Source: Solirubrobacter phytolaccae (GTDB lineage Bacteria > Actinomycetota > Thermoleophilia > Solirubrobacterales > Solirubrobacteraceae). From it: a DNA stretch of 64,000 bases. Position 1 is the stretch's first letter. Each line of letters begins with the position of its first letter. A program made the translations under genes and the position numbers. Shown here one piece after another: positions 5,540 to 48,488 of this stretch. Location of the stretch: assembly GCF_027587195.1 (NCBI RefSeq), contig NZ_JAPDDP010000004.1, positions 1-64,000 on the forward strand, read 5' to 3'. The notes under the pieces are model-generated. The model made no database searches and was not told where the DNA came from. It saw only the letters and a program-made list of their open reading frames with translations.

Positions 5540-5565
5540 GGCGTTGAAGGTAGCCGCATTGAAAC

Positions 5566-5836
5566 GAACTCGGCCCCGCTGGTCAGGCGGGGCCGTTGTT
5601 CGTTCGCATCTTCAGGCCGGCGTCATCCGTGGGAGCGAGCGCGGTCCGGGGGAAAGGACAAGGGCGACTCGCTGGGAGGACTGGAGGAGGGAGAGAGAGG
5701 AGTTCCTGGTGTCTTCGGCTTGGAGAGTGTCTTTCGACACTGGGAACTCTCCCACTCGGCGCGGGTCGATCTTTGGGTGGAGGCTGGCGTCTGGGGGTGT
5801 GGCCAGTCGTGCTTTCGAGGTGGGGAAAACCGCACC
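5566..5836. repeat. 271-bp direct repeat, copy A
   Basis: By eye this aligns without gaps to 7652-7922 at a constant offset of 2086 bp, with about ten differences (roughly 96 % identity). It fills nearly the whole gap between the lipoprotein gene and the 120-residue protein gene. Stems visible in both copies are a GC-rich 9-bp hairpin at 5571-5595, GAGAGT/ACTCTC enclosing GTC-TTTC-GAC near 5724-5750, and CTGGC/GCCAG near 5784-5806. Five of the ten differences fall in the loop of the last stem, as expected for a structured RNA. It starts 10 nt after the stop of the minus-strand gene, so on that strand it would be its 3' UTR. ORFs inside it look spurious. Confidence 0.8.
5571..5595. terminator. 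GC-rich hairpin at the end of repeat copy A
   Basis: CGGCCCCGC and GCGGGGCCG form a perfect 9-bp stem with a 7-nt loop. It is followed by TTGTTCGTT on the plus strand and by GAGTTCGTTT on the minus strand, so it could terminate in either direction. Lying just upstream of the lipoprotein promoter, it probably ends minus-strand transcripts of the 5846-6208 gene. Confidence 0.6.
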
Positions 5837-7643: not shown

Positions 7644-7651
7644 GCGTTAAA

Positions 7652-7922
7652 GAACTCGGCCCCGCTGGTCAGGCGGGGCCGTTGTTCGTTCGCATCTTCA
7701 GGCCGGCGTCATCCGTGGGAGCGAGCGCGGTCCGGGGGAAAGGACAAGGGCGACTCGCTGGGACGACTGGAGGAGGGAGAGAGAGGAGTTCCTGGTGTCT
7801 TCGGCTTGGAGAGTGTCTTTCGACAATGGGAACTCTCCCACTCCGGGCGGGTCGATCTTTGGGTGGAGGCTGGCGTCTGCAAGTACGGCCAGTCGTGCTT
7901 TCGAGGTGGGGGAAACCGCACC
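7652..7922. repeat. 271-bp direct repeat, copy B
   Basis: Same orientation as copy A, with no gaps and about ten substitutions. It lies between the convergent ends of the cupin gene (plus) and a methyltransferase gene (minus). At its right edge CGAGGTG and CACCTCG (7902-7908 and 7919-7925) make a 7-bp stem that is imperfect in copy A. A 107-residue minus-strand ORF crosses it but has no plausible protein composition. The repeats bound 5837-7651, so recombination between them would delete the four genes in between. Confidence 0.8.
7657..7681. terminator. GC-rich hairpin at the end of repeat copy B
   Basis: Identical 9-bp stem and 7-nt loop to the hairpin in copy A. It follows the cupin stop codon by 13 nt and is followed on the plus strand by TTGTTCGTT; on the minus strand it is followed by GAGTTCTTT. 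It probably serves as a bidirectional terminator for the converging cupin and methyltransferase transcripts. Confidence 0.65.
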
Positions 7923-12672: not shown

Positions 12673-15612
12673 TCAGCGGACGGCGGTCTTGCGGTCGGTC
12701 GCGACCTGCGCCGGCGTGAGCGCGCCGGCGTATAGGCGGATGTCGTCGAGCCGGCCGATGATGCCGCTGAAGCGCAGCTCACTCGCGCTGCGGGGCGGCG
12801 CGCCGGCTCGGCGCTTGCTGCTCGCGAGCTTGCCGTCGCGGTAGACGCGGACGGTCGTGCCGTCGTAGGTCAGCGCGACGTGCGTCCAGCGGTTGCGGGG
12901 GAGTGAGGCGGGCGCGGACGTGGTGCCGACACGGCCGCCGCTCGTAGACAGCCGCAGCGCGGACCCGCGCTGCGCGATCGTCCCCGGCCGGGTCGCGTAG
13001 ACCCACGCCTCCAGCGTGAACGTGTCCAGTCGCGGCGGGCGCACGACGAAGCGGTTGCGGCCGTCGAGTCGCAGCGCCCGTCCGTGGCGCCCGGGGGCGC
13101 GCTTGGCACCGGCGGGACGATCGTCGAACGCCCAGGCGCCGAGCAGCGTGGCGCGCGCGGGCGCGGGAAGGACGACGGGCGGCTCGAACGGCGGCGGCAG
13201 CGGCGTGAGCGGCGGGCCGACGTCATCCGGAAGCACGACGGGCGGCGCGGGCGGCTCCGGCGTCTCGGTGGGGACGGGCGTCGCCGTGTCGGTCGGCGTG
13301 GCCGTCGGGGTCGCGGTGGGGGTCGGCGTCGGCGTGCCCGTGGGCGTTGGCGTCGGCGTGCGCGTGGCAGTTGGCGTCGGGGTCGCCGTGGGCGTGGGCG
13401 TCGGCGCCGTGAACCGCGCCGTGTACGTCACGCCGCCCGAGGCGGGCGCGACCACCCAGCCCGCCGACGACGGTCCACCGGTCCAGCCCGAGAACGTGTA
13501 CGGCACGCCGCCGAGCGACTGCGGCGACCGCGCCCCGACCGAGTTCTGCGACTTGGCGAGCACCGTGCGCGTGAACGGCGTCACGAGCGTCTCGCTGCCG
13601 AGTGAGGCCAGCAGCCCGGCGGGCTCGGTGCGCACGGTCAGGTCCGCGGTGCGCGGGTCCAGCCGGACGGTCCGCGTCGTCGTCAGCCCCGCGGCGTCGA
13701 CCGCGGTGAGCGAGAGCTCCAGGTGTGACGGGTACTCGTGGTCGGGCGCGACGAAGCTCCCGGAGCCGACGCCCGCGTAGTCCTGGATGGCGTGCGTGTG
13801 GCAGACGGTCGCGTCCGTGCGCGAGCAGTGGCGCAGCGAGAGCGACCAGGTGAGCCGGGAGGCGGCGAGCGTCGCGCCCGCGCTGTTGCGGGCCGACCCA
13901 ATGAAGGTGATCGTGTCCCCGACCGCCCAGGTGGTGGTCGCGGTCGGCGCGCTGATGGTCACCGTCGGCGGCGCGCCGATCGTGATCGTCTGCGTCGCGG
14001 TGCCGGAGAGCCCGGCGGTGTCCGTCACGCGCAGGCGCGCGGTGACGCTGCCGGGCGAGCGGTACGTGTACGAGGCCCGGGCGGTGGCGGCGTCGTCGTA
14101 GGCGCCGTCGCCGTCCAGATCCCACGCGTACGTGAGCGGCCGGCTCTCGGGATCGGTCGACTTCGTGCCGTCGAAGGTCACGCTGAGCGGCGCGACGCCC
14201 TCGCTCGGCGTGGCCGTGATCCGCGCGGTCGGCGCGTTGTTGTCGGCCGCGATCCGGTGGACCTTGCCGCCCAGCAGGTCGGCGTAGTAGAGGGCGCCGT
14301 CCGGGCCCTGGGTGAGCCACACCGGGCCGTCGGCCTTGGCGGCGAACGTCTCCCGCGTGCTCATGTCCGGCAGACCGTCGGCGCCCTTGTAGACCACCCA
14401 GATGCATGCGCGTGAGTAGTCGCTGAAGAACAGCGCGTCCGTGTACGCGGCCGGGAACGAGCCGCCGGTGTAGAAGTGCAGGCCGGAGATCGAGCTCGAG
14501 CCGGTGGTGCACGTCTCGCCCGGGACCACCTTCTCGTTGTGGTGGTAGGCGAAGTACGGGGCGGTCGCGCCGCCCTCGGTGTAGAGCGACTCGCACGACG
14601 TGGTGTTGAGCGAGTCGTACGCGCCCAGCTTCGGCGTGCCCTCGTAGCACGGCCAGCCGTAGTTGCGGACCTGCGCGAGGTTCTGCGTGCGGTTGATCTC
14701 CTCGTACGTGTTCCAGCCGACGTCGCCCGACCAGATCTCGCCCGTGCCCGGCCGGAACGTGAACCGGAACGGGTTGCGCATGCCGTACGCGACGATCCGC
14801 CGGCGGTTGACGTCGGCGTTCCCGATCGCGGGGTTGTCGGACGACGCGGCGCCCGTGTCGGGGTTCACGCGCAGGATCGAGCCGTTGAGCGCGACGGCCT
14901 GGCCGGCGGGGCGGCGGAACGCCTGCGAGCGCAACGCGCCGCCTTGCGAGCTCGACGCGGACGGCGTCGCACCGGCGGTGCCGGGCGGGTCGCCGCACGG
15001 GTTGACCGGGTTGCCGTCCTGGCCGTAGTCGGCCCAGTTGAAGGAGGCGCCGTCGCCGCTGGAGACGTACAGCTGGCCGTCGGGGCCGAAGTCGAGCGAG
15101 CCGAGGGAGTGGCTCGGGTACTGCTGGCACCAGTCCTCGATCAGCACCGTCTCGGTGCCGTTGGCCGCGAGCCGGCTGAGGCGCCCGCTGATCACGCAGC
15201 CGTCGCCCGTCGGCCCGGGCGGGGTCGGGCAGGTGTCACCCCAGCGGGGCTGCGTCGCGCTGTTCGGCGCCTTGTCGTACGCGTACAGCACGTACACGTA
15301 GGGACGGCCGGTCGTGAAGTTCGGGTCCAGCGCCATGCCCAGCAGCCCGCGGTCCCAGTAGTCGTGGACCTTCGAGCGCAGGTCGACGAACGCCGTCGGC
15401 GTCGTGTCGTCGAGGGAGTCGAAGACGTTGATCACGCCGCTCTTGCCGGCGATGAACACGCGGCCGTCCGGCGCGAAGCGGATCACCGTCGGATTGCCGA
15501 GCCCGCTCCACTGGGTGGTCTGCGTGAACCCGCTCGGCAACACGACCGCGCGCGCCGAACCGGCGCTCACCAGCGTTCCGAGGACGACGAGCATGACGAT
15601 CAGTCTCCGCAC
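12673..15612 (-). CDS. Secreted glucose/sorbosone dehydrogenase-like protein with PKD and LamG domains (copy 1)
   Basis: 979 residues. Signal peptide (about 1-26), then a six-bladed beta-propeller of the PQQ-dependent sugar dehydrogenase/YliI family to about residue 455 (LPSGFTQTTQWSGLGNPTVI, YGMRNPFRFTFRPGTGEIW, GPDGALYYADLLGGKVHRI). A PKD domain (about 465-545), one or two Ig-like modules, a Pro/Thr linker (about 734-790) and a C-terminal LamG/concanavalin-like domain (about 822-979) follow. The order suggests a surface or secreted oxidoreductase held to polysaccharide. GTG start at 15612 is chosen because the tandem paralogue has the same VRRL start. Confidence 0.85.
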   Translation of the reverse strand: MRRLIVMLVVLGTLVSAGSARAVVLPSGFTQTTQWSGLGNPTVIRFAPDGRVFIAGKSGVINVFDSLDDTTPTAFVDLRSKVHDYWDRGLLGMALDPNFTTGRPYVYVLYAYDKAPNSATQPRWGDTCPTPPGPTGDGCVISGRLSRLAANGTETVLIEDWCQQYPSHSLGSLDFGPDGQLYVSSGDGASFNWADYGQDGNPVNPCGDPPGTAGATPSASSSQGGALRSQAFRRPAGQAVALNGSILRVNPDTGAASSDNPAIGNADVNRRRIVAYGMRNPFRFTFRPGTGEIWSGDVGWNTYEEINRTQNLAQVRNYGWPCYEGTPKLGAYDSLNTTSCESLYTEGGATAPYFAYHHNEKVVPGETCTTGSSSISGLHFYTGGSFPAAYTDALFFSDYSRACIWVVYKGADGLPDMSTRETFAAKADGPVWLTQGPDGALYYADLLGGKVHRIAADNNAPTARITATPSEGVAPLSVTFDGTKSTDPESRPLTYAWDLDGDGAYDDAATARASYTYRSPGSVTARLRVTDTAGLSGTATQTITIGAPPTVTISAPTATTTWAVGDTITFIGSARNSAGATLAASRLTWSLSLRHCSRTDATVCHTHAIQDYAGVGSGSFVAPDHEYPSHLELSLTAVDAAGLTTTRTVRLDPRTADLTVRTEPAGLLASLGSETLVTPFTRTVLAKSQNSVGARSPQSLGGVPYTFSGWTGGPSSAGWVVAPASGGVTYTARFTAPTPTPTATPTPTATRTPTPTPTGTPTPTPTATPTATPTDTATPVPTETPEPPAPPVVLPDDVGPPLTPLPPPFEPPVVLPAPARATLLGAWAFDDRPAGAKRAPGRHGRALRLDGRNRFVVRPPRLDTFTLEAWVYATRPGTIAQRGSALRLSTSGGRVGTTSAPASLPRNRWTHVALTYDGTTVRVYRDGKLASSKRRAGAPPRSASELRFSGIIGRLDDIRLYAGALTPAQVATDRKTAVR

Positions 15613-15664
15613 GACACCGAACGTAAAGCGCGCGGCGCGTCCTGGCGCGTGGATATCCGTCCAC

Positions 15665-18388
15665 TCAGCGCACGGCGGCCCGCATGTCGCGGGCGAGCTG
15701 CGGCGCGTCCAGCGCACCGTCGTACAGGCGGACGTCGTCCAGCCGGCCCACGAACGCGCCGAAGCGCAGCGGGCTCGTGCTGCGCGGGAGCGCCCCGCGC
15801 TTGGTGGCGATGAGCTTGCCGTCGCGATACGTGCGCAGGGCCGTGCCGTCGTAGGTCAGCGCGAGGTGCGTCCAGCGCTTGCGCAGCGTGGTCGGCAGGC
15901 GGAAGGCACTCCCGCGCTGCGCGACGGTCCCCGCGCGCGTCGCGTACACCCACGTCTCGACCGTGAACGCGTCGAGCGGCTTGGGGCTAACGGCGAAGCG
16001 GTTGCGGCCGTCCAGGCGCAGCGCCTTGCCGTGGCGGCCGGCCACACGCTGCTTGGTGCCGGTGTTGAAGCCCCACGCGCCGAGCAGCTTCGGGGCCGCG
16101 GGGAGGCCACCGAGGTCGGGCGGCAGGAACGGGATCACCCGAGGCGGATCCTCCGGCGGCGGCGTGGCGGTCGGCGTGGCCGTGGCCGTGGGGGTCGGCG
16201 TCGGCGGTGGCGTGAAGCGCGCGGTGTAGGTGGCGGTGCCCGAAGCCGGCGCCGTGACCGACCCGCCGGGCGTGACCCCGCCACTCCAGCCCGCGAACGT
16301 GTAGGGCACGCCGCCGAGCGTCTGCGACGCCTTCGCGGCGACCGAGTTCTGCGACCGCGCCATGACCGTGCGCGTGAACGGTGCGACCGCGAGCTCGTTG
16401 CCGAGCGTGAGCTCCAGGCCGGGCGGGTCGCTCGCGAGGGTCAGGTCGACCGTGCGCGGATCGATCCGCACGACCTTCGTGGCCAGAAGCCCGGCTCCGT
16501 CGACGGCCGTCAGCGAGAGCTGCAGGTGCGACGGGTACTCGTGGTCGGGTGCGACGACGCTCGCGCCGGCCTTGCCCACCCAGTTCTCGACCGGGTGCGT
16601 GTGGCAGAGCGTCGCGTCCGTGCGCGCGCAGTGCCGGATCGCGAGCGACCAGGTGAGCGCGGACGCCGGCAGCGAGGCGCCCGTGCTGTCCTGCGCGCTG
16701 CCGGAGAAGTCGAGCGTCTCGCCGACGGTGAACCGGTCCGGCGCGGTGATCGCGACCGTCGGGAGCGCGCCGATCGTGATCGTCTGCGCCGCCGTGTGGC
16801 TCTGGCCGCCGACCTCCGTGACGCGCAGGCGGGCGACGACCGTGCCGGGGCTCGTGTACGTGAACGTGGGCTTGGCGGCGGTCGAGTCGTCGTACTCGCC
16901 GTCACCGTCGAGGTCCCACGCGTAGCTCAGCTCACGGCCTTCCGGGGCGGTCGACCCGGTGCCATCGAAGGCCACGTCGAGCGGCGCGAGGCCCTCCGAC
17001 GGCGTGGCGGTCACGTGGGCGGTCGGCCGGTTGCCGCGCCACTCGATCCGGCGGATCGCGCCGGTCAGCAGGTCCGCGTAGTAGAGCGCGCCGTCCGGGC
17101 CCTCGGTCAACGAGACGGGGATGGCCACGTCGGAGGCGAACGTCTCGAGCGTCGACATGTCCGGCAGGCCGCCGGCGCCCGCGTAGGCGACCCACACGCA
17201 CTGGCGCGAGTGGTCGCTGAAGAACAGCGCCTGCTTGAACTTGGCCGGGAAGGCATCGCCCGTGTAGAACGCCAGGCCGGAGATCGACCCCTGCGCGGCC
17301 GGGCACGGATCGCCGGGCACGACCGGCACGCCGTGGCGGTAGGAGAAGTACGCGTCGCTCGTGCCGTTGTGCGCGTACAGCGCGTCGCACGTCTGATTGC
17401 CCATCGTGCCGAACGCCCAGTGCAGCTCCGTGCCCTCGTAGCACGGCCACCCGTAGTTCGGCACGTTCGCGACGTCCTGGAGGCGGTTGATCTCCTCGAT
17501 GAAGTCCGCGCCGACGTCGCCGATCCAGAGCTCGCGCGTCCCGGGCCGGAACGTGAAGCGGAACGGGTTGCGGAAGCCGTACGCGATGATCCGCCGGCGG
17601 TTCTCGTCGGCGTCCGCGATCGCCGGGTTGCCGGCCGACGCGGCGCCCGTGTCCGGGTCCACGCGCAGGATCGCGCCGTTGAGCACGACGGGCTCGCCGG
17701 CCGGTCGGCTGAACGACTGCGACCGCAGCGAGCCGCCCTTGGCCGAGGTCGGGTCCAGCGGATCGACCGGGTCCCCGCACGGGTTGCCGTTCTGGCCGTA
17801 GTCGCCCCAGTTGAACGAGGCGCCGTCACCGGCGGAGACGTACAGCTGCCCGTCGGGGCCGAACTCGAGCCCGCCGACCGAGTGCGACGGGAACTGCTGG
17901 CACCAACCCTCGATCAGCACGGTCTCGGTGCCGTCGGGCGCCAGGCGCGAGAGCCGCCCGGAGATCACGCACCCGTCCTCGGTCGGGCCGGGCGGGGAGG
18001 GGCAGGTGTCGCCCCAGCGCGGCTGCAGCGGGTTGCCCGGCTCCTTGTCGTAGGCGTAGAGCACGTACACGTAGGGTCGGCCGGTCGTGAAGTGCGGGTC
18101 CAGGGTCATGCCGAGCAGGCCGCGGTCCCAGTAGTCGTGCACCTGCTCGCTGAGGTCGACGAACCGCGTCGGGCTCGTGTCCTCGAGGCTGTCGAACACG
18201 TCGACGGACCCGCCCTTGCCCGCGACGAAGACCCGCCCGTCGTCGGCGAACCGGGTCACGACCGGGGCTCGCAGACCCGACCAGACGGTCGTCTCCGTGA
18301 ACCCCTTGGGCAGCACGACGGCCGAGGCCGAGGCGGCTCCCGCAAGCAGCACGAGAACCGCAACCATCAATCCGACAAGCCTCCGCAC
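15665..18388 (-). CDS. Secreted glucose/sorbosone dehydrogenase-like protein with PKD and LamG domains (copy 2)
   Basis: 907 residues and clearly the paralogue of the next gene downstream: the same domains in the same order, with a shorter Pro/Thr linker (about 726-744). Signal peptide about 1-27; propeller to about 450 (LPKGFTETTVWSGLRAPVVT, YGFRNPFRFTFRPGTRELW); PKD about 459-540; LamG from about 764. Both copies keep the Cys-rich segment RWGDTCPxPPGPTxDGCVIS. PQQ and calcium binding are inferred from the family. GTG start at 18388. Only 52 bp separate it from copy 1, so the two may be cotranscribed. Confidence 0.85.
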   Translation of the reverse strand: MRRLVGLMVAVLVLLAGAASASAVVLPKGFTETTVWSGLRAPVVTRFADDGRVFVAGKGGSVDVFDSLEDTSPTRFVDLSEQVHDYWDRGLLGMTLDPHFTTGRPYVYVLYAYDKEPGNPLQPRWGDTCPSPPGPTEDGCVISGRLSRLAPDGTETVLIEGWCQQFPSHSVGGLEFGPDGQLYVSAGDGASFNWGDYGQNGNPCGDPVDPLDPTSAKGGSLRSQSFSRPAGEPVVLNGAILRVDPDTGAASAGNPAIADADENRRRIIAYGFRNPFRFTFRPGTRELWIGDVGADFIEEINRLQDVANVPNYGWPCYEGTELHWAFGTMGNQTCDALYAHNGTSDAYFSYRHGVPVVPGDPCPAAQGSISGLAFYTGDAFPAKFKQALFFSDHSRQCVWVAYAGAGGLPDMSTLETFASDVAIPVSLTEGPDGALYYADLLTGAIRRIEWRGNRPTAHVTATPSEGLAPLDVAFDGTGSTAPEGRELSYAWDLDGDGEYDDSTAAKPTFTYTSPGTVVARLRVTEVGGQSHTAAQTITIGALPTVAITAPDRFTVGETLDFSGSAQDSTGASLPASALTWSLAIRHCARTDATLCHTHPVENWVGKAGASVVAPDHEYPSHLQLSLTAVDGAGLLATKVVRIDPRTVDLTLASDPPGLELTLGNELAVAPFTRTVMARSQNSVAAKASQTLGGVPYTFAGWSGGVTPGGSVTAPASGTATYTARFTPPPTPTPTATATPTATPPPEDPPRVIPFLPPDLGGLPAAPKLLGAWGFNTGTKQRVAGRHGKALRLDGRNRFAVSPKPLDAFTVETWVYATRAGTVAQRGSAFRLPTTLRKRWTHLALTYDGTALRTYRDGKLIATKRGALPRSTSPLRFGAFVGRLDDVRLYDGALDAPQLARDMRAAVR

Positions 18389-18482
18389 TCGTCGGAATCT
18401 AAACCGTCGGGCGCCGGGCGTCGTGAACATTCGTCCACGCCGCGCTTGCGCAGCGAACGTCGTGAACCTAGGGTGACCGCCG

Positions 18483-18929
18483 ATGGAGACGGGCACGGAA
18501 GCTCGCCGGGGGATCGGCCCGGCCTGGGTCGCGGTCGCGCTGGGCGTGGTCGTGGCGCTCGCGCTCGCCGTCACCTCACGCTCCGAGGGCGTGCCCGGCC
18601 AGCCGCTCGAGCTGCAGACCTTCCAGGCGATCGGCAGCCGTGACAGCGCGATCGCCGTCCAGGTCGGCGTTCGCAACACCGGCGAAGTCGACCTCGAAGT
18701 GCTCGACGCGTGGATCCCCGACCTCGACGACGTCCACTTCGGCAGCGGCACCAACGCGCCCACGAGCACGGTGCGCGCCCGCGCGGACGGCACCTTCGCC
18801 CTGCGCATCCCGACGTTGTGCCCGAACCCGCCGGCCCTTGACCGGGTCAACGTCCGCGTGCGCATCAACGGCCATGTGCACGCGCAGTCGCTCCGCTTCC
18901 CCGGCGCCGTCCGCTGGAAGTGCCGATGA
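18483..18929 (+). CDS. Membrane-anchored protein of unknown function
   Basis: 148 residues. One N-terminal hydrophobic span (residues 13-32) is followed by an outward beta-rich domain with VQVGVRNTGEVDLEVLDAWI, much like the conserved NEAT/CARDB-like folds that carry a pair of Cys (LCPNPPAL and a C-terminal WKCR). Overlaps the next gene by 4 bp (ATGA). First gene in a three-gene operon. I do not recognise the family. Confidence 0.65.
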   Translation: METGTEARRGIGPAWVAVALGVVVALALAVTSRSEGVPGQPLELQTFQAIGSRDSAIAVQVGVRNTGEVDLEVLDAWIPDLDDVHFGSGTNAPTSTVRARADGTFALRIPTLCPNPPALDRVNVRVRINGHVHAQSLRFPGAVRWKCR

Positions 18930-27142: not shown

Positions 27143-27180
27143 GGCGTCGGCGCGCCGACGCCGGAAGACGGCGCGCCGTC
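27143..27180. repeat. Two adjacent GC-only palindromes with GGCGCGCC cores
   Basis: GGCGTCGGCGCGCCGACGCC (27143-27162) is a perfect 20-bp palindrome and GACGGCGCGCCGTC (27167-27180) a perfect 14-bp palindrome. They lie just after the AbiEi-like stop, in the 149-bp gap before the next gene. They could form terminators or protein-binding sites. The rest of the gap holds only the next gene's Shine-Dalgarno. Confidence 0.5.
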
Positions 27181-27269
27181 AATGCAGACATGAGCGCGCC
27201 GTACGGAGCGGCGGGGAGCGCGATGGAAGGCTTCGGCCCTCCCCGCACCTCGCCCTTCAAGGAGCTGCA

Positions 27270-38639: not shown

Positions 38640-41465
<2,826 letters not shown>

Positions 41466-41469
<4 letters not shown>

Positions 41470-42341
41470 CCGACGAGCTGCCACACGATGTCGAGACGCT
41501 CGCGCGGCGACTGTCTGCCGTCGACTACCTCGTCGACGAAGGGCTCGCGACCGCGCTCTTCCTCAGCCTCCGCCTCCCGCAGCCCCTGCTGCTGGAGGGT
41601 GAGGCCGGGGTCGGCAAGACGGAGGCCGCGCGGTCGCTGGCGCGCGCCCTAGACACGCCGCTGATCCGGTTGCAGTGCTACGACGGCATCGACGCCGCCG
41701 AGGCGCTGTACGAGTGGAACTATCCGCGCCAGCTGTTGAGCATCCGGCTCGCCGAGGCGACCGGCGAGAAGCTGGCCGAGGGTGACCTGTTCGGTCGCGA
41801 GCACCTGATCGCGCGCCCGCTGCTGCAGGCGCTCGAGCACCCGGGCCCGCGGCCGGCGGTGCTCCTGATCGACGAGGTCGACCGCGCCGACGACGACTTC
41901 GAGGCGTTCCTGCTCGAGCTGCTGGCGGAGGCCGCGGTGACGATCCCGGAGCTCGGCACGATCCGGGCCGAGCACCCGCCGGTGATCATCCTCACGTCCA
42001 ACCGCACCCGGGACCTGCACGACGCCGTCAAACGCCGCTGCCTGTACCAGTGGCTGGACTACCCGAGCCGGGAGCGCGAGCTGGACATCGTGCGGCGGCG
42101 CGTGCGGGGTGTGAGCGACGGCCTCGCCAACGCGGTCGTCGCGGCGGTCGCCACGCTGCGCGACGCCGACATCCAGAAGCCGCCCGGCATCGCCGAGGCG
42201 ATCGACTGGCTGCGGGCGCTCGAGCTGCTCGGCATCACCGAGCTCGACGAGACGACGATCGACCGCACGCTCGGCTCGGTGCTCAAGTACGCGGAGGACC
42301 AGGACGTGGTCCGCGCCGCCGGCCTCGGGAGCCTGGTTTGA
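41466..42341 (+). CDS. coxD: MoxR-type AAA+ ATPase, CoxD
   Basis: 291 residues. Walker A is LLEGEAGVGKTEAAR, Walker B is AVLLIDEVDRAD and the sensor region has ILTSNRTRDLHDA. CoxD is needed to build the [CuSMoO2] centre, probably as an unfoldase or chaperone. GTG at 41466 overlaps the coxL stop; the 3' end is coupled to coxE through TTGA. Confidence 0.93.
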
Positions 42342-43681
42342 GGCGACGACTCGGCCAGGGGCCTCGCGTCGCGGGGACGACTCGCCCGGAGGGCTCGTCC
42401 TCCCGGGCGCTTCCGATCCCGGAGCTGGCCGCCGCGTTTGGTCGCCGCCTGCACGAGGCGGGCGTGCCGGTCACACCGGAGCGCAGCGCCCGGTTCGCCG
42501 ACGCGCTCTCGCTCACGCAGCCGTACGCGCGCACCCGCCTGTACTGGACGGCGCGCGCCGTGTTCGTCTCCGACCCCGCGCAGGTGCGCGCCTTCGACAC
42601 CGTCTTCTTCGACGTCTTCGGCGGCGTGACGTTCACGTACGACGCGCCGCCGGATGTCGAGCACGAGCTCGCGGTGGCCGACGACCGGCCCGCGAGCGCC
42701 GATGCGAAGGGCGGCGCGCCCGGCGGCGCCTCTCCCACCCCGGGTGACGGTGAGGCGACCAACGACGCGGTGTCGGTCGTGCCCGTGGTCGCCAGCGACG
42801 AGGAGCGCCTGCGCGACAAGCACTTCGATGCCTTGGAGCCGGGCGAGCTCGCGCAGCTGTATCGGCTGATGACGGAGTTCCGGCTCGCCGCGCCCGTGCG
42901 CCGGCGGCGCCGGGCCAAGCGCGACCGCCGCGGCCAGCACATCGACCTGCGCCGGACGCTGCGCGGCGCGCTGCGGACGGCCGGTGACCCGGTGAACCTG
43001 CAGCGCCGCCGGCGCGTGGTCGAGCGGCGGCGGATCGTGCTGCTGTGCGACATCAGCGGCTCGATGGAGCCGTACTCGCGCGCGTTCCTGCAGTTCCTCA
43101 CCTGCGCGGGCAAGGACGCGGAGGCGTTCGTGTTCGCCACGCGCCTGACGCGGATCACGCGCGCGCTCGCCACGCGCTCGCCGGAGCGCGCGATCCAGCG
43201 GGCCGCGGCGGCGGCGCCCGACTGGTCCTCCGGCACCCGGATCGGCGAGGCGCTGAAGACCTTCAACGACCGCCACGGCCGGCGCGGGATGGCGCGCGGC
43301 GCGGTGATCGTGATCCTGTCGGACGGCTGGGAGCGCGGCGACCCGGCGCTGGTCGCGCAGGAGATGGAGCGCCTGTCACGGCTCGCGTACCGGATCGTGT
43401 GGGTGAACCCACGCGTGGCGGCCGCCGGCTTCTCACCGCGGGTCGGTGGGATGGCCGCGGCGCTCCCGTTCGTCGACGCGTTGATCTCCGGTCACAACCT
43501 CGAGGCGATGCACGAGGTGATCGCCGAGATCGGCTCCGAGCGCACGCGCAAGCTGGAGCCGATCGAGCCCGAGGAAGAGGAGTGGGCGAGCGCGACGCCC
43601 GTGGCCGGCAGCAGCGTCGCCATGCCGAGCGGCTACAGCCCGAGCCGAGGAAGGACCACACCCGGATGGGACCTGCACTGA
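42338..43681 (+). CDS. coxE: VWA-domain protein, CoxE
   Basis: 447 residues. The C-terminal von Willebrand A domain has the MIDAS motif CDISGSMEPYSRAFLQFL. The N-terminal half is the CoxE helical domain, with a Gly/Pro-rich insert at about residues 120-145. CoxE works with CoxD in maturation of the CO dehydrogenase active site. TTG at 42338 overlaps the coxD stop. Its end overlaps a 52-residue protein gene by 16 bp. Confidence 0.9.
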   Translation: MRRRLGQGPRVAGTTRPEGSSSRALPIPELAAAFGRRLHEAGVPVTPERSARFADALSLTQPYARTRLYWTARAVFVSDPAQVRAFDTVFFDVFGGVTFTYDAPPDVEHELAVADDRPASADAKGGAPGGASPTPGDGEATNDAVSVVPVVASDEERLRDKHFDALEPGELAQLYRLMTEFRLAAPVRRRRRAKRDRRGQHIDLRRTLRGALRTAGDPVNLQRRRRVVERRRIVLLCDISGSMEPYSRAFLQFLTCAGKDAEAFVFATRLTRITRALATRSPERAIQRAAAAAPDWSSGTRIGEALKTFNDRHGRRGMARGAVIVILSDGWERGDPALVAQEMERLSRLAYRIVWVNPRVAAAGFSPRVGGMAAALPFVDALISGHNLEAMHEVIAEIGSERTRKLEPIEPEEEEWASATPVAGSSVAMPSGYSPSRGRTTPGWDLH

Positions 43682-43824
43682 CTTGCATCTACCCCGGCTG
43701 CGACCGCCCGGTCGTGCCGCCCAACCAGGCCGGCGGCCCGCCGTCGGCGTTCTGCGACCGCGAAGACCACAACGCCCTGACCGCCCATCAGGAGCGCAAA
43801 CGACTGGAGGCACAAGGTGGCTGA
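43666..43824 (+). CDS. 52-residue Cys/His small protein in cox operon
   Basis: Contains CIYPGCDRPVV and FCDREDH, giving Cys7, Cys12, Cys30 and a His at 34, a plausible single zinc site. The rest is a charged helix (AHQERKRLE). The gene overlaps both neighbours (16 bp with coxE, 8 bp with the CoxL-like domain), which supports expression. Perhaps an assembly factor; unknown. Confidence 0.65.
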   Translation: MGPALTCIYPGCDRPVVPPNQAGGPPSAFCDREDHNALTAHQERKRLEAQGG

Positions 43825-44257
43825 CGAGGCCTATCGCGCGGTGTTCCTGCGCGTCCACCCGACGGGGAAGATGGTGCTGAGCCTCACCACCCGCGCCGAC
43901 GGCAACGAGCCCGGCTACGCGCAGCTCGTCGCCGACGAGCTCGGCGTTCCCGCCCTGGACGTGAAGGTCGTGCCCGCCGACGAGGATCGCTTCGGCACCG
44001 GCCACGGCTTCAACGAGAGCCCGTCGTCCGGAACGCCCGCGGCGATCACGGTCGCCACCGGCAAGATCCTCGCCAAGGCCAAGCTGCTCGCCGGCGCCGA
44101 CCTCGGCACGGACGACCTGCAGTGGGACAACGGCGCGTTCGTGAGCGGCGCCGAGGCGCGCACGATCGCCGACGTCGCGCTGTACGCGCACGGCACGGGT
44201 GCGTTGCCGCCCGGCGTCGAAGGCGGCCTCGACGCCCAGACGGTTTACAAGGACTAG
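43817..44257 (+). CDS. Stand-alone CoxL-like domain protein
   Basis: 146 residues. The sequence lines up with residues of about 485-627 of the adjacent CoxL: HPTGKMVLSLTTRADGNEPG against HPSGKAVVSLSAQTQGQGHE, and PGVEGGLDAQTVYKD against EGMEGGLDAQVIYDP. In CoxL this is the start of the second Mo-cofactor-binding domain. Here the QGQGHE cofactor-loop residues are changed and the Cu-Cys and Glu domains are absent, so it cannot be an enzyme alone. It keeps a full start (GTG at 43817) and stop and lies in an overlapping operon, so it is likely a real protein, perhaps a chaperone or insertion scaffold. Confidence 0.75.
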   Translation: MADEAYRAVFLRVHPTGKMVLSLTTRADGNEPGYAQLVADELGVPALDVKVVPADEDRFGTGHGFNESPSSGTPAAITVATGKILAKAKLLAGADLGTDDLQWDNGAFVSGAEARTIADVALYAHGTGALPPGVEGGLDAQTVYKD

Positions 44258-44701
44258 ATGGCCACCTACGGACCCGAAGACGCGACGCTGACCGTCCACA
44301 CCAAGCGCGCGGGCGCGGCGGCGAAGGCCGGCCACGACCTGACGATCCTCGTCGAGCGCTGGAGCGCGACCTACGAGGACGGCACGCTGGACTTCGAAGC
44401 CGACCCGCGCAGCCTGCGCGTGCTCAAGGGCGAGGGCGGCATCGGCACCCTCGGCGACGAGGAGAAGGCGGGGATCAAGGAGACGCTCGAGGACGAGATC
44501 CTCGACGGCTCGCCGATCACCTACCGCGGCGGCGAGCTGACGCTCAACGGCGTCACGCACCCGGTCGCGTTCACGTTCGACGGCACGGAAGGTCGTGCCG
44601 AGGTCAAGCAGACCGACTTCAAGATCAAGCCCTACTCGGCGCTGTTCGGGACCCTCAAGGTCGCCGACGTCGTCGAGGTGAAAGTGAGGACCAATGGTTG
44701 A
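44258..44701 (+). CDS. YceI-like lipocalin-fold protein
   Basis: 147 residues. The start YGPEDATLTVHTKRAGAAAK and GHDLTI match the YceI family, a calycin-like barrel that binds isoprenoids or polyprenyl compounds. No signal peptide is seen, unlike exported YceI proteins. Immediately follows the CoxL-like protein gene and overlaps CoxG by 8 bp. A link to the quinone acceptor of CO dehydrogenase is conceivable but untested. Confidence 0.75.
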   Translation: MATYGPEDATLTVHTKRAGAAAKAGHDLTILVERWSATYEDGTLDFEADPRSLRVLKGEGGIGTLGDEEKAGIKETLEDEILDGSPITYRGGELTLNGVTHPVAFTFDGTEGRAEVKQTDFKIKPYSALFGTLKVADVVEVKVRTNG

Positions 44702-45122
44702 GCTCAACCACCGCTTCGACACCGGCAAGGACGACGCCGACAACTGGCAGGCCGTGCTCGACCTCGACCGGCTCATCCCGTGCGTGGAAGGCGGCAAGGT
44801 CCTCGAACGCGAGTCCGACGAGAAGGCCAAGGCCGAGATCAAGGTCAAGATGGGCGCGATGTCGATGACGTTCCGCGGCACCGTGGAGGTCACGCAGCGC
44901 GACGACGACGCGCGCACCGCCGTGTTCGCGGTGCGTTCGAAGGACACGGGCGGCTCGGGCTACGCGAACGCCGACGTCACCTTCGACCTCTCGGGCGGCG
45001 GCGGCGACATCAACACGAAGGCGACGATCAACGGCAAGGCCGCGTCGATGGGGGAGGGCGTGGTGCAGACCGTCCTCGACGCGATGATCAAGGACTTCAC
45101 CACCAAGCTCGCGAAGATCTGA
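44694..45122 (+). CDS. coxG: CoxG-like SRPBCC subunit
   Basis: 142 residues. The CoxG/SRPBCC fold is shown by LNHRFDTGKDDADNWQAVLD, then LIPCVEGGKVLE and TTKLAKI. CoxG anchors CO dehydrogenase to the inner membrane and takes part in quinone delivery. ATG at 44694, overlapping YceI; its stop overlaps the next start by one base. The usual C-terminal membrane helix of longer CoxG proteins is not seen here, and the five small membrane proteins might supply the membrane contact. Confidence 0.88.
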   Translation: MVELNHRFDTGKDDADNWQAVLDLDRLIPCVEGGKVLERESDEKAKAEIKVKMGAMSMTFRGTVEVTQRDDDARTAVFAVRSKDTGGSGYANADVTFDLSGGGGDINTKATINGKAASMGEGVVQTVLDAMIKDFTTKLAKI

Positions 45123-45373
45123 TGGCCGAGCGGATGACCATGCGGCGGGTGCGCGAGGGCGAGGTGCCGCCGGACGGCGCCACCGCCCTGCAGGACGATC
45201 CCGCCCGCCCGGTCTTCCGCGCCAACGGCCCGTACGACTACGTGTGCGTCGAGTGCGGGAACGTGCTCGCGGCCGCGATGGGGATGGAGCAGATGACCAA
45301 GCGCGTGCGCATCAAGTGCGGTGCGTGCAAGACGGTCAACGTCGCCGTGTTCGACGCGAAGGGCGAGACATGA
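45122..45373 (+). CDS. 83-residue zinc-ribbon protein in cox operon
   Basis: Cys pairs are VCVECGNVLAAAM and IKCGACKTVN, a four-Cys zinc ribbon. The N-terminal half is charged (MAERMTMRRVREGEVPPDG). ATG at 45122 overlaps the CoxG stop by one base; the stop overlaps coxL copy 2 by 4 bp. Such ribbons often act in metal delivery or protein assembly. No exact family recognised. Confidence 0.7.
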   Translation: MAERMTMRRVREGEVPPDGATALQDDPARPVFRANGPYDYVCVECGNVLAAAMGMEQMTKRVRIKCGACKTVNVAVFDAKGET

Positions 45374-47658
45374 CGGCCTTCGGCTCCGTTCGCCGGAAGG
45401 AGGACGCGCGGCTCATCCGTGGGCAGGGCCGGTTCGTGGATGACATGGAGCTGCCCGGGATGCTGCACGGCGCGGTGCTGCGGTCGCCCTACGCGCATGC
45501 GGAGGTGGTGTCGATCGACGCGACGGCCGCGCTGCAGCATCCGAAGGTCCATGCCGTGCTCACCGCTTCCGAGCTCGGCGACATGGCCTGGATGCCGACG
45601 CTCTCGGCCGACACGCAGGCCGTGCTGGCGGGGGACCGCGTGCTCTTCCAGGGTCAGGAGGTCGCGTTCGTCGTCGCCGACGATCGCTACTCCGCGCGCG
45701 ACGCGCTCGAGCTGATCGAGGTCGAGTACGAGCCGCTGCCGGTCGTCACCGACGCCCGCGCCGCGTTGCTCGACGACGCCACACCGGTGCGCGACGCCGG
45801 CAACCACGTCTTCGACTGGGAGGCGGGTGACCCCGACGCGACCGCGCGCGTGTTCGCCAACGCCGAAGTCGTCGTCGAGCAGGACATGGTGTTCCCGCGC
45901 TCGCACCCGGCGCCGATGGAGACGTGCGGCGCGATCGCCTCCTTCGACCGTGTGGAGGGCAAGCTCACGCTGTGGTGCACGACGCAGGCGCCGCACGCGC
46001 ACCGGACGATGTACGCGCTCATCACCGGCCTGCCGGAGCACCGCATCCGCGTGGTCTCGCCCGACGTCGGCGGCGGCTTCGGCAACAAGGTCCCGGTCTA
46101 TCCGGGGTACGTGTGCGCGATCGCCGCGTCGATGCAGCTCGGCGTGCCCGTCAAGTGGGTGGAGGATCGCTCGGAGAACCTGATGTCGACCGGCTTCGCC
46201 CGCGACTACGCGATGCGCGGGCGGATCGCGGCTTCGGCCGACGGTCGCATCCGCGGCATCGCCGTCGACGTGATCGCCGACCACGGCGCGTTCAACGCCA
46301 CCGCCCAGCCGACCCGGTACCCCGCCGGCTTCTTCTCCGTCTTCACCGGCTCCTACGACGTCGAGGCCGCGCACTGCCGCGTGACGGGCGCGTTCACGAA
46401 CAAAGCGCCGGGTGGCGTCGCCTACGCGTGCTCGTTCCGGATCGCCGAGGCCGTCTATCTCGTGGAGCGGCTGGTCGACTGCCTCGCACGCGAGCTGGGC
46501 GTGGACCCCGTCGCGCTGCGGCTGCAGAACCTCATCCGCGCGGACCAGTTCCCGTACGCGAGCAAGACCGGCTGGGTCTACGACTCCGGCGACTACGAGG
46601 CGGCGTTGATCGAGGCGCTGCGGATCGCGGACTACGACGCGCTGCGCGCCGAGCAGGCCGAGAAGCGGGCGCGCGGCGAGCTGATGGGCATCGGCCTGTC
46701 CTTCTTCACCGAGGCGGTCGGGGCCGGGCCGCGCAAGCACATGGACATGCTCGGGCTGGCGATGAACGACGGCGCCGCGATCCGCATGTCGCCCACCGGC
46801 ACGGCACAGGTCGCGATCAGCGTGCAGTCGCAGGGCCAGGGGCACGAGACGACGTTCGCGCAGATCGTCGCGCACGAGCTCGGGCTGGAGGTCGACGACG
46901 TCGAGGTGCTGCACGGCGACACCGACAACACGCCGTACGGGCTCGGCACCTACGGGTCGCGCTCGACGCCGGTGTCCGGAGCCGCGACGGCGATCGCCGC
47001 GCGCAAGGTCCGTGACCGGGCGCGTCTGGTGGCGGCGGCGATGCTCGAGGTCGCGCCCGAAGACCTGGTGTGGCGAGAGGGTCGTTGGTCCGTCGCGGGA
47101 GATCCGAGCGTCGGCGCAACCATCCCCGAGATCGCGCGCGCGGCCCGCGGCACGCTGGACCTCCCGCCGGGTGTGGAGACCGGGCTGGACGCCGAGGCCG
47201 TCTACGACCCGCCCAACCTGACGTTCCCGTTCGGCGCCTACGTCTGCGTCGTCGACATCGACCCGGGCACGGCGGTCGTCAAAGTGCGGCGCTTCATCGC
47301 GGTCGATGATTGCGGCGTGCGCATCAACCCGGCGATCGTCGAGGGCCAGATCCACGGCGGCCTGACGGACGGGATCGGGATGGCGCTGATGGAGACGATC
47401 GCCTTCGACGAGGACGGCAACTGCCTCGCCGGCTCGCTGATGGACTACCTGATCCCGACCGCCGTCGAGGTCCCCGACTGGGAGACCGGGATGACCGTCA
47501 CGCCTTCACCGCACCACCCGATCGGCGCGAAGGGCATCGGCGAGTCCGCGACCGTCGGCTCGCCGCCCGCGATCGTCAACGCCATCTGCGACGCGCTCGG
47601 CGTCGCCCATGTCGACATGCCGTGTACTCCGTCCCGCGTCTGGGAGGCCATGCAGTGA
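45370..47658 (+). CDS. coxL: CO dehydrogenase large molybdenum subunit, form I, copy 2
   Basis: 762 residues. The form I motif is AYACSFR, with Cys at residue 354, and the catalytic Glu is at 725 in KGIGES. GGGFGNKVPVYPGY and QGQGHETTFAQIVAHELG are intact. It differs from copy 1 in many places yet keeps all catalytic residues, so it should be active. The partner subunits are probably coxM copy 1 and the leftward coxS. ATG at 45370. Confidence 0.95.
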   Translation: MTAFGSVRRKEDARLIRGQGRFVDDMELPGMLHGAVLRSPYAHAEVVSIDATAALQHPKVHAVLTASELGDMAWMPTLSADTQAVLAGDRVLFQGQEVAFVVADDRYSARDALELIEVEYEPLPVVTDARAALLDDATPVRDAGNHVFDWEAGDPDATARVFANAEVVVEQDMVFPRSHPAPMETCGAIASFDRVEGKLTLWCTTQAPHAHRTMYALITGLPEHRIRVVSPDVGGGFGNKVPVYPGYVCAIAASMQLGVPVKWVEDRSENLMSTGFARDYAMRGRIAASADGRIRGIAVDVIADHGAFNATAQPTRYPAGFFSVFTGSYDVEAAHCRVTGAFTNKAPGGVAYACSFRIAEAVYLVERLVDCLARELGVDPVALRLQNLIRADQFPYASKTGWVYDSGDYEAALIEALRIADYDALRAEQAEKRARGELMGIGLSFFTEAVGAGPRKHMDMLGLAMNDGAAIRMSPTGTAQVAISVQSQGQGHETTFAQIVAHELGLEVDDVEVLHGDTDNTPYGLGTYGSRSTPVSGAATAIAARKVRDRARLVAAAMLEVAPEDLVWREGRWSVAGDPSVGATIPEIARAARGTLDLPPGVETGLDAEAVYDPPNLTFPFGAYVCVVDIDPGTAVVKVRRFIAVDDCGVRINPAIVEGQIHGGLTDGIGMALMETIAFDEDGNCLAGSLMDYLIPTAVEVPDWETGMTVTPSPHHPIGAKGIGESATVGSPPAIVNAICDALGVAHVDMPCTPSRVWEAMQ

Positions 47659-48488
47659 TCCCCGCCCACCGGATCGAGGAGCTCCGCGCCGCGCGCGAGG
47701 CCTTCGTCGTCGCCACCGTCGTGCGCGCCGCCAAGCCGACGAGCGTCCGTCCCGGCGACTCCGCGCTCGTCTTCTCCGACGGCACGATCGAGGGCTTCGT
47801 CGGCGGCGTCTGCGCGCAGGAGTCCGTACGCCTGCAGGCGGCCCGCGCATTGGAGACCGGCGAGGCCACGCTGCTCCGGCTGCTCCCCGGCCTGGCGATC
47901 TCCGAGCGCGACCCACTCGACGGCGTCGTCGTCTCCCACAACCCCTGCCTGAGCGGAGGCGCCTTGGAGATCTTCCTCGACCCCCAGCCCGTCGCCCCGC
48001 GGATCGCGATCGTCGGCGACACCCCGATCGCCCGCGCCCTCACCGCGATCGCCCGCGCCGCCGAGTACGACGTCGGCATGGTCCCCGAGGCCGGCGACGC
48101 CGCGCTCGTCGTCGCCTCCCACGGCGAGGCCGAGGAGGACGCGCTCGCCGTCGCCCTGCGCCTCAACGTGCCCTACGTCGCGCTCGTCGCGTCACCCAAG
48201 CGCGGCCGCGCGGTCCGCGAGTCCGTCGACGACGAGCTCCGCGCCCGCATCCACACGCCCGCGGGCCTGGACATCGGCGCCCGCACCCCGGCGGACATCG
48301 CGATCTCGATCCTCGCCGAGCTGATCGCCCAGCGCACCGCGCCGCCGGTGGACGCCCCGATCGAGAGCGCGACCGACCCGATCTGCGGCATGGAGGTCCT
48401 GGCCTCCGAGCAGACCGTCCACCTCGACACCGCCGACGGACGCGTGTACTTCTGCTGCGAGGGCTGTCGGTCGGCATACGTTCACTGA
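47655..48488 (+). CDS. coxI: XdhC/CoxI family maturation protein with C-terminal YHS-like domain
   Basis: 277 residues. The N-terminal XdhC/CoxI domain has RAAKPTSVRPGDSALVFSDG and GFVGGVCAQESVRLQAARAL. A central Rossmann part has IAIVGDTPIARALTAIAR. The C-terminus (about 230-277) holds DPICGMEV and YFCCEGCRSAYVH, a YHS-like metal-binding module. XdhC proteins insert sulfurated Mo cofactor; the YHS module could handle copper or another metal. GTG at 47655 is coupled to coxL copy 2. Last gene of the cox operon. Confidence 0.85.
   Translation: MIPAHRIEELRAAREAFVVATVVRAAKPTSVRPGDSALVFSDGTIEGFVGGVCAQESVRLQAARALETGEATLLRLLPGLAISERDPLDGVVVSHNPCLSGGALEIFLDPQPVAPRIAIVGDTPIARALTAIARAAEYDVGMVPEAGDAALVVASHGEAEEDALAVALRLNVPYVALVASPKRGRAVRESVDDELRARIHTPAGLDIGARTPADIAISILAELIAQRTAPPVDAPIESATDPICGMEVLASEQTVHLDTADGRVYFCCEGCRSAYVH

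What the first reader, a model, noticed from the sequence alone, without database searches (positions are those of the whole stretch)
5566..5836. The repeat looks like a structured RNA or conserved 3' UTR element
Several stems are visible: the 9-bp terminator-like hairpin, GAGAGT/ACTCTC enclosing a GTC-TTTC-GAC hairpin, and CTGGC/GCCAG. Half of the differences between copies fall in the loop of the last stem, where a structured RNA tolerates change, while stems are unchanged. In both copies the element follows the stop codon of a minus-strand gene and ends at the hairpin, so it would be transcribed as a 3' UTR or processed RNA. ORFs through it have unlikely composition.
Basis: partly seen in the sequence, partly recalled or inferred. 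Interest (0 to 1): 0.75.

Follow-up and report, generated by a model that had tools for sequence, protein, structure and literature searches.

The report
Orphan copies of a new leader RNA
The repeat is a small structured RNA gene whose front part belongs to an apparently undescribed family of messenger-RNA leaders that, across a whole class of bacteria, sit at the start of exporter genes, but here the leader stands alone with no gene to control.

Summary
The repeat is real: window 5563-5836 and 7649-7922, minus strand, 96% identical. It is a structured RNA, but not a 3' UTR element in the sense proposed. Its 5' ~100 nt (hairpin P1 GGUGCGG...CCGCACC, box AGACGCC[UA]G, Shine-Dalgarno-like box) belongs to a leader-RNA family absent from Rfam 15. 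Covariance models find this leader in all 7 Solirubrobacter genomes and in 93 of 399 genomes of the class Thermoleophilia at E<=0.01 (about 4 expected by chance). Of 40 class hits examined, 23 end within -12..+60 nt of a credible same-strand gene start (opposite-strand control: 2); 13 precede MMPL exporters. P1 covaries; helices beyond P1 are weak or unsupported. The window copies, like most close relatives, are orphans: behind the leader lie the relic of a small-peptide region that is intact elsewhere in the genus, and an invariant terminator hairpin. Two homologous copies lie divergent from their upstream gene, against a general 3' UTR origin. Most likely reading: a riboswitch-like or protein-binding leader class, ligand unknown, with ORF-less, terminator-ended copies that are either trans-acting small RNAs or slowly decaying relics.

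The parts
5563..5836 (-). Element copy 1 (w1): leader domain + peptide-region relic + terminator
   Evidence: repeat D4, covariance model R1 (w1 is one of its training sequences)
7649..7922 (-). Element copy 2 (w2)
   Evidence: repeat D4, R1 (training sequence)
5736..5836 (-). w1 leader domain, member of the class-wide leader family
   Evidence: R2 96.4 bits, R3 89.8 bits, E 3.8e-20; w1 is in R3's training set, but the class hits are not
7822..7922 (-). w2 leader domain
   Evidence: R2 95.1 bits, R3 85.8 bits; in the training sets
5828..5836 (-). P1 5' arm GGTGCGGTT (w2: 7914-7922)
   Evidence: covariation; positions
5796..5804 (-). P1 3' arm GGCCACACC (w2: 7882-7890); w1 has a C.A mismatch at the fifth pair
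5782..5792 (-). conserved box AGACGCCAGCC (w2: 7868-7878)
   Evidence: alignments A2, A5, A7 and class hits
5747..5753 (-). Shine-Dalgarno-like GGGAGAG (w2: 7833-7839)
   Evidence: sequence and alignment
5612..5740 (-). 42-codon frame from GTG, not conserved across relatives (w2: 7698-7826 from TTG)
5716..5721 (-). P3 5' arm AAGCCG, partner 5614-5619 (w2: 7802-7807 and 7700-7705)
   Evidence: moderate covariation, p=0.023
5683..5701 (-). pyrimidine tract TCCTCTCTCTCCCTCCTCC, derived from the peptide-coding region (w2: 7769-7787)
   Evidence: comparison with L048
5572..5594 (-). terminator hairpin, identical in all 9 aligned copies (w2: 7658-7680)
27167..27238 (+). weak further leader candidate just upstream of a secreted-protein gene
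   Evidence: R3 E=0.016 in the window; the similar gene in G005 has a weak R2 hit in the same place

Best explanation
The element is a minus-strand, terminator-ended RNA unit made of two parts. The 5' ~100 nt is a member of a structured mRNA-leader family of Thermoleophilia that normally lies directly before a start codon, most often that of an MMPL-type exporter, and probably controls translation initiation through the Shine-Dalgarno-like box at its 3' end in response to an unknown ligand or protein (membership shown; regulation inferred). The 3' ~175 nt descends from a small-peptide coding region followed by a terminator; in the window copies the peptide start codons and frame are lost (shown by comparison). 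The window copies are therefore orphan leaders. If transcribed they make a ~270-nt untranslated RNA that could act in trans, most simply as a decoy for whatever binds the leader (inferred).
For: Leader model R3 matches 93/399 class genomes at E<=0.01; 23 of 40 hits end at a same-strand gene start against 2 on the opposite strand; 13 of those 40 precede MMPL genes, as do L131, L136, L159, L166. P1 covariation. Intact leader-ORF1-ORF2 units in the same genus, one of them in the own genome; the intermediate L048 with only ORF2. Terminator 23/23 identical in 9 aligned copies of 4 species where fourfold sites of two neighbouring genes are 60-74% identical. Copies L003 and L010 lie divergent from the upstream gene.
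Against: No transcript data. No helix beyond P1 is firmly supported (P3 p=0.023, P4 p=0.048, P5 fails; SD-sequestering helix not supported). No sigma-70-like promoter was found near either copy. Overall identity between species (about 64-82%) is only moderately above or similar to fourfold sites, so much of the body may drift; L011 has lost the P1 5' arm. w1's lowest-energy P1 fold differs from the family's long P1. The CM E-values are rough and the MMPL share was not tested against a genomic background.
Confidence: 0.55

Rival explanations
1. The leader family is functional elsewhere, but the window copies are decaying duplicates of a leader-plus-peptide unit without function of their own, conserved because they are young or exchange sequence with each other.
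For: ORF starts and frame are lost, one copy is truncated, one lacks the P1 5' arm, one has a degenerate 3' half; body identity is near that of fourfold sites.
Against: The terminator and several boxes are invariant across 4 species, P1 and P3 show compensatory changes among ORF-less copies, and ORF-less copies are kept in at least five of seven genomes.
Confidence: 0.35
2. The conserved palindrome GGTGCGG-N4-CCGCACC is a DNA operator for a transcription factor that controls exporter genes, not an RNA hairpin.
For: In compact forms it is a nearly invariant perfect dyad with almost fixed spacing to the gene; exporter genes are typical repressor targets (general knowledge).
Against: Long forms separate the arms by roughly 23-36 nt and the outer arms still pair in 16 of 21 lowest-energy folds, several with nested hairpins; arms change in a compensatory way there; the conserved boxes run up to the start codon.
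Confidence: 0.15
3. The window copies are still mRNAs for a diverged peptide, started at the GTG/TTG behind GGGAGAG.
For: The start and SD-like box are kept in most copies; w1, w2, L003, L006 and L010 reach the same stop; N-termini are similar.
Against: The frame of the ancestral PVV motif differs between copies, L012 and L007 run on in other frames, and L008/L009 and L011 have TAA directly behind the start position.
Confidence: 0.12
4. The repeat is the end of an insertion sequence or another mobile element.
For: Copies of one sharply bounded unit at different sites.
Against: No inverted repeat of 40 nt or more involves it in the window; no transposase was recognised among the inspected neighbours; copies end at the P1 start and the terminator. 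No IS library was searched and no clean empty site was found.
Confidence: 0.04

Closest known systems
Orphan riboswitch candidates / structured mRNA leaders found by comparative genomics (e.g. PMC7266159, PMC6429828; listed, not read)
   Same: conserved hairpin plus conserved unpaired boxes directly before start codons, many transporter genes
   Different: no Rfam 15 match, no ligand known, only one well-supported helix
SreA and Rli55 of Listeria (PMC8079631)
   Same: riboswitch-derived RNAs that act in trans, one by base pairing, one by protein sequestration
   Different: there the action was tested; here no transcript, target or ligand is known, and the window copies have no downstream gene at all
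HEARO / omega-RNA
   Same: structured RNA of a few hundred nt in several copies
   Different: no Rfam match and no IscB/TnpB gene recognised among the inspected neighbours
Anti-SD, C-rich-loop small RNAs such as 6C (from memory)
   Same: pyrimidine-rich single-stranded tract and C-rich loops
   Different: no Rfam match; the tract corresponds to the codons of the ancestral peptide region

Membership tests
Any Rfam 15 family (HEARO, 6C, cobalamin, SAM and all others) | covariance-model match at or near the gathering score | tested here: not met
   gathering and permissive searches of the window and 32 related loci: no plausible hit
Riboswitch / cis-regulatory leader (as a kind) | position directly upstream of coding starts on the same strand | tested here: met
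   for the family, not for the window copies: 23/40 against 2/40 control; MMPL genes
Riboswitch / cis-regulatory leader (as a kind) | conserved secondary structure with covariation | tested here: inconclusive
   P1 yes (alignments fitted to P1); no further helix established
Riboswitch / cis-regulatory leader (as a kind) | ligand binding that changes expression | not testable with these tools
   needs probing and reporters
3' UTR element | always behind a same-strand stop codon | tested here: not met
   w1 and w2 yes, but L003 and L010 lie divergent from the upstream gene
Trans-acting small RNA | own discrete transcript and targets | not testable with these tools
   terminator present, no promoter match, no RNA data
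HEARO / omega-RNA | Rfam match or an associated IscB/TnpB gene | tested here: not met
   no Rfam match; neighbours inspected only within about 2-3 kb
Insertion sequence end | terminal inverted repeats, transposase, target-site duplication | tested here: inconclusive
   none seen, but no IS library was searched and no exact empty site was available

The most novel reading that the evidence does not exclude
A new riboswitch class of Thermoleophilia that senses a compound or membrane signal handled by MMPL-type exporters, with gene-less, terminator-ended copies in Solirubrobacter that evolved from peptide-coding mRNAs into trans-acting decoy RNAs.
Probability: 0.25. Interest if true: 0.85.

Novelty: new variant of a known kind. 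Interest (0 to 1): 0.68.

Why it matters
If the leader family is regulatory, it would be an RNA control system for exporters in a bacterial class for which the searched library returned no riboswitch paper. The MMPL association gives a concrete starting point for finding its ligand. The gene-less Solirubrobacter copies, with the intermediate L048, offer a traceable case of a small peptide-coding mRNA turning into a non-coding RNA, or dying.

Tried and rejected
(1) Rfam at gathering and permissive thresholds on the window and 32 related loci: only weak chance-type hits. (2) A second helix sequestering the SD box looked convincing by eye (CTCC/GGAG, CTGCC/GGCAG, CTCGC/GCGAG), but own pairings were no better than permuted ones, and a mutual-information analysis of 39 compact leaders gave no second helix. 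(3) Helix P5 failed. (4) An anti-SD small-RNA reading of the pyrimidine tract was set aside because the tract corresponds to codons of the ancestral peptide region; no target search was made. (5) Glycine and cobalamin riboswitch resemblances by eye: no Rfam support. (6) An exact empty site for w1 or w2: the neighbouring genes lie in other surroundings in the other species. (7) Exact pattern scan of viral contigs with a stretch of the element: no hit. (8) Literature for the motif, the PVVRE peptide and Solirubrobacter or Thermoleophilia RNAs: nothing relevant. (9) The terminator as a common genus-wide terminator: rejected, the exact 23-mer has only 4 copies in the own genome, and an exact scan of 84,980 species returned only Solirubrobacter records.

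Full report
1. The observation. The window holds two 274-nt copies, 5563-5836 (w1) and 7649-7922 (w2), with 11 substitutions. The RNA strand is the minus strand: there the unit begins with GGUGCGG and ends with the hairpin GGCCCCGC-CUGACCA-GCGGGGCC (5572-5594; 7658-7680). The terminator scan finds the hairpin on both strands of both copies, 4 sites against 0.8 expected. w1 lies 9 nt and w2 31 nt behind a minus-strand stop codon. The clustered differences at 5794-5800 lie in the 3' arm and linker of P1.

2. Close relatives. Whole-genome searches find the unit only in the window's genus: three copies in the own genome (w1, w2, and one on C133 at 84% identity), three full and one truncated in G002, two plus one degenerate in G004, one each in G001 and G006. 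An exact scan of 84,980 species with the terminator 23-mer returns only Solirubrobacter records; this genus belongs to Solirubrobacteraceae, Thermoleophilia. Covariance model R1 adds diverged relatives in G003 and G005 and nothing in the other 139 family genomes. The terminator is 23/23 identical in the 9 aligned copies from 4 species, while fourfold sites of two neighbouring genes are 60-74% identical between those species. The body as a whole is 64-82% identical between species, so conservation is patchy rather than uniform. Recently duplicated copies share the unit but not the flanks.

3. What the unit is derived from. Three weaker R1 hits (L056, L051, and L058 in the own genome) match chiefly the first ~100 nt, and there an ATG follows directly: a small ORF1 (MNPSLIQ...RRRRPR) and an ORF2 (MTxxATxxRRxxSHAFAxPVVRExP...W). 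ORF2 peptides recur in the genus, also between an EamA-type gene and folP (gene names here from the sequences by eye) and behind an MFS-like gene, and one related frame occurs in another genus. Pfam and NCBIfam have no family for them. The G005 relative L048 keeps ORF2 but has lost the ORF1 start. In w1, w2 and most other copies the ORF2 start is gone and the frame of the PVV motif varies, although an SD-like GGGAGAG and a GTG/TTG open 40-42 codons in several copies. L008/L009 and L011 carry TAA right after that position. The unit thus looks like a leader-plus-peptide mRNA that lost its peptides.

4. The leader is a large family. Model R2, built on 14 leader domains, finds the leader in all genus genomes, including loci it was not built from (folP loci, MMPL loci, further peptide loci), and outside the genus. 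R3, built on 37 leaders, matches 93 of 399 class genomes at E<=0.01, in 51 of 128 genera, where about 4 genomes would be expected; the calibration is short and rough. Independent of E-values, 23 of the 40 class hits examined end within -12..+60 nt of a credible same-strand ORF of at least 100 aa, and 2 of 40 in the opposite-strand control. Pfam assigns MMPL to 13 of these 40 and to L131, L136, L159 and L166 in the genus and family. Others are MFS, ABC ATPases, a Na/H exchanger, LPG_synthase_TM, PPDK_N, DAGK, berberine-type oxidases, cupins and serine hydrolases. MMPL enrichment was not tested against a genomic background, and the 40 hits were the better-scoring ones outside the genus.

5. Structure. 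P1 is the one well-supported helix: permutation p about 0.005 in the element's relatives and in all leaders, 0/500 shuffles in larger alignments (alignments fitted to P1, and shuffles do not correct for relatedness). The arms are 4 nt apart in compact forms and about 23-36 nt apart in long forms, several with nested hairpins; the outer arms pair in the lowest-energy fold of 16 of 21 long forms, but not in w1 itself. P3 (p=0.023) and P4 (p=0.048) are moderate to weak and P5 fails. An SD-sequestering helix is attractive but unproven.

6. Not a 3' UTR in general. L003 and L010 begin just beyond the start of a divergently transcribed gene, so these copies need a promoter of their own if they are transcribed. 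w2 runs towards a convergent cupin gene, so it cannot be a leader of the next gene. No sigma-70-type promoter match was found near w1 or w2, so co-transcription with the upstream gene remains possible for these two.

7. Mechanism. Shown: sequence membership, position and orientation of the family, P1 pairing, loss of ORFs in the window copies, the terminator hairpin. Inferred: the leader regulates translation initiation of the gene behind it, with exporters as main targets; the ligand or protein is unknown. Inferred with less confidence: the orphan copies are transcribed and act in trans, as SreA does by base pairing and Rli55 by protein sequestration (PMC8079631). Decay is almost as likely. 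The DNA-operator rival is kept at 0.15 because the compact palindrome is nearly invariant.

8. Novelty. No Rfam 15 family matches and no paper was found in the held library. The kind (structured mRNA leader) is known; the class and its gene-less copies appear undescribed.

Noticed in passing
window 27167-27238 (+): Weak further leader candidate (R3 E=0.016 in the window) just upstream of a secreted-protein gene; the similar gene in G005 has a weak hit in the same place.
   Followed up: partly
L061, L062, L063, L128, L129, L135, L137, L051: A family of 35-43 aa peptides with the motif PVVRE and a C-terminal W (ORF2), often behind a 25-29 aa ORF1 MNPSL..RRR; no Pfam or NCBIfam family.
   Followed up: partly
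L077, L079, L084, L133: Leader + PVVRE peptide + terminator lie between an EamA-like gene and folP, on the same strand, which could be an attenuator of folP.
   Followed up: no
L160, L164, L224, L229: Leader followed at once by a small frame MQPxxSSYxEGLT... before an LPG_synthase_TM gene in another genus of the family.
   Followed up: no
L142 (G000:C30) and L054 (G003:C8): Leader-like RNA with terminators of different stem but the same loop CTGACC, upstream of a TrpB-like gene (by eye); the loop may be a genus preference.
   Followed up: no
L018 6011-6292 and 7654-7935 (G002): Two copies 96% identical whose differences are nearly all in the P1 5' arm and loop, with no shared flanks.
   Followed up: no
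L051 1501-1765 (G003:C7): Two leaders in tandem, each directly before its own small ORF.
   Followed up: no
window 12673-18868 and 39352-47667: Two sets of diverged tandem gene duplications, 70-92% identical over long stretches.
   Followed up: no
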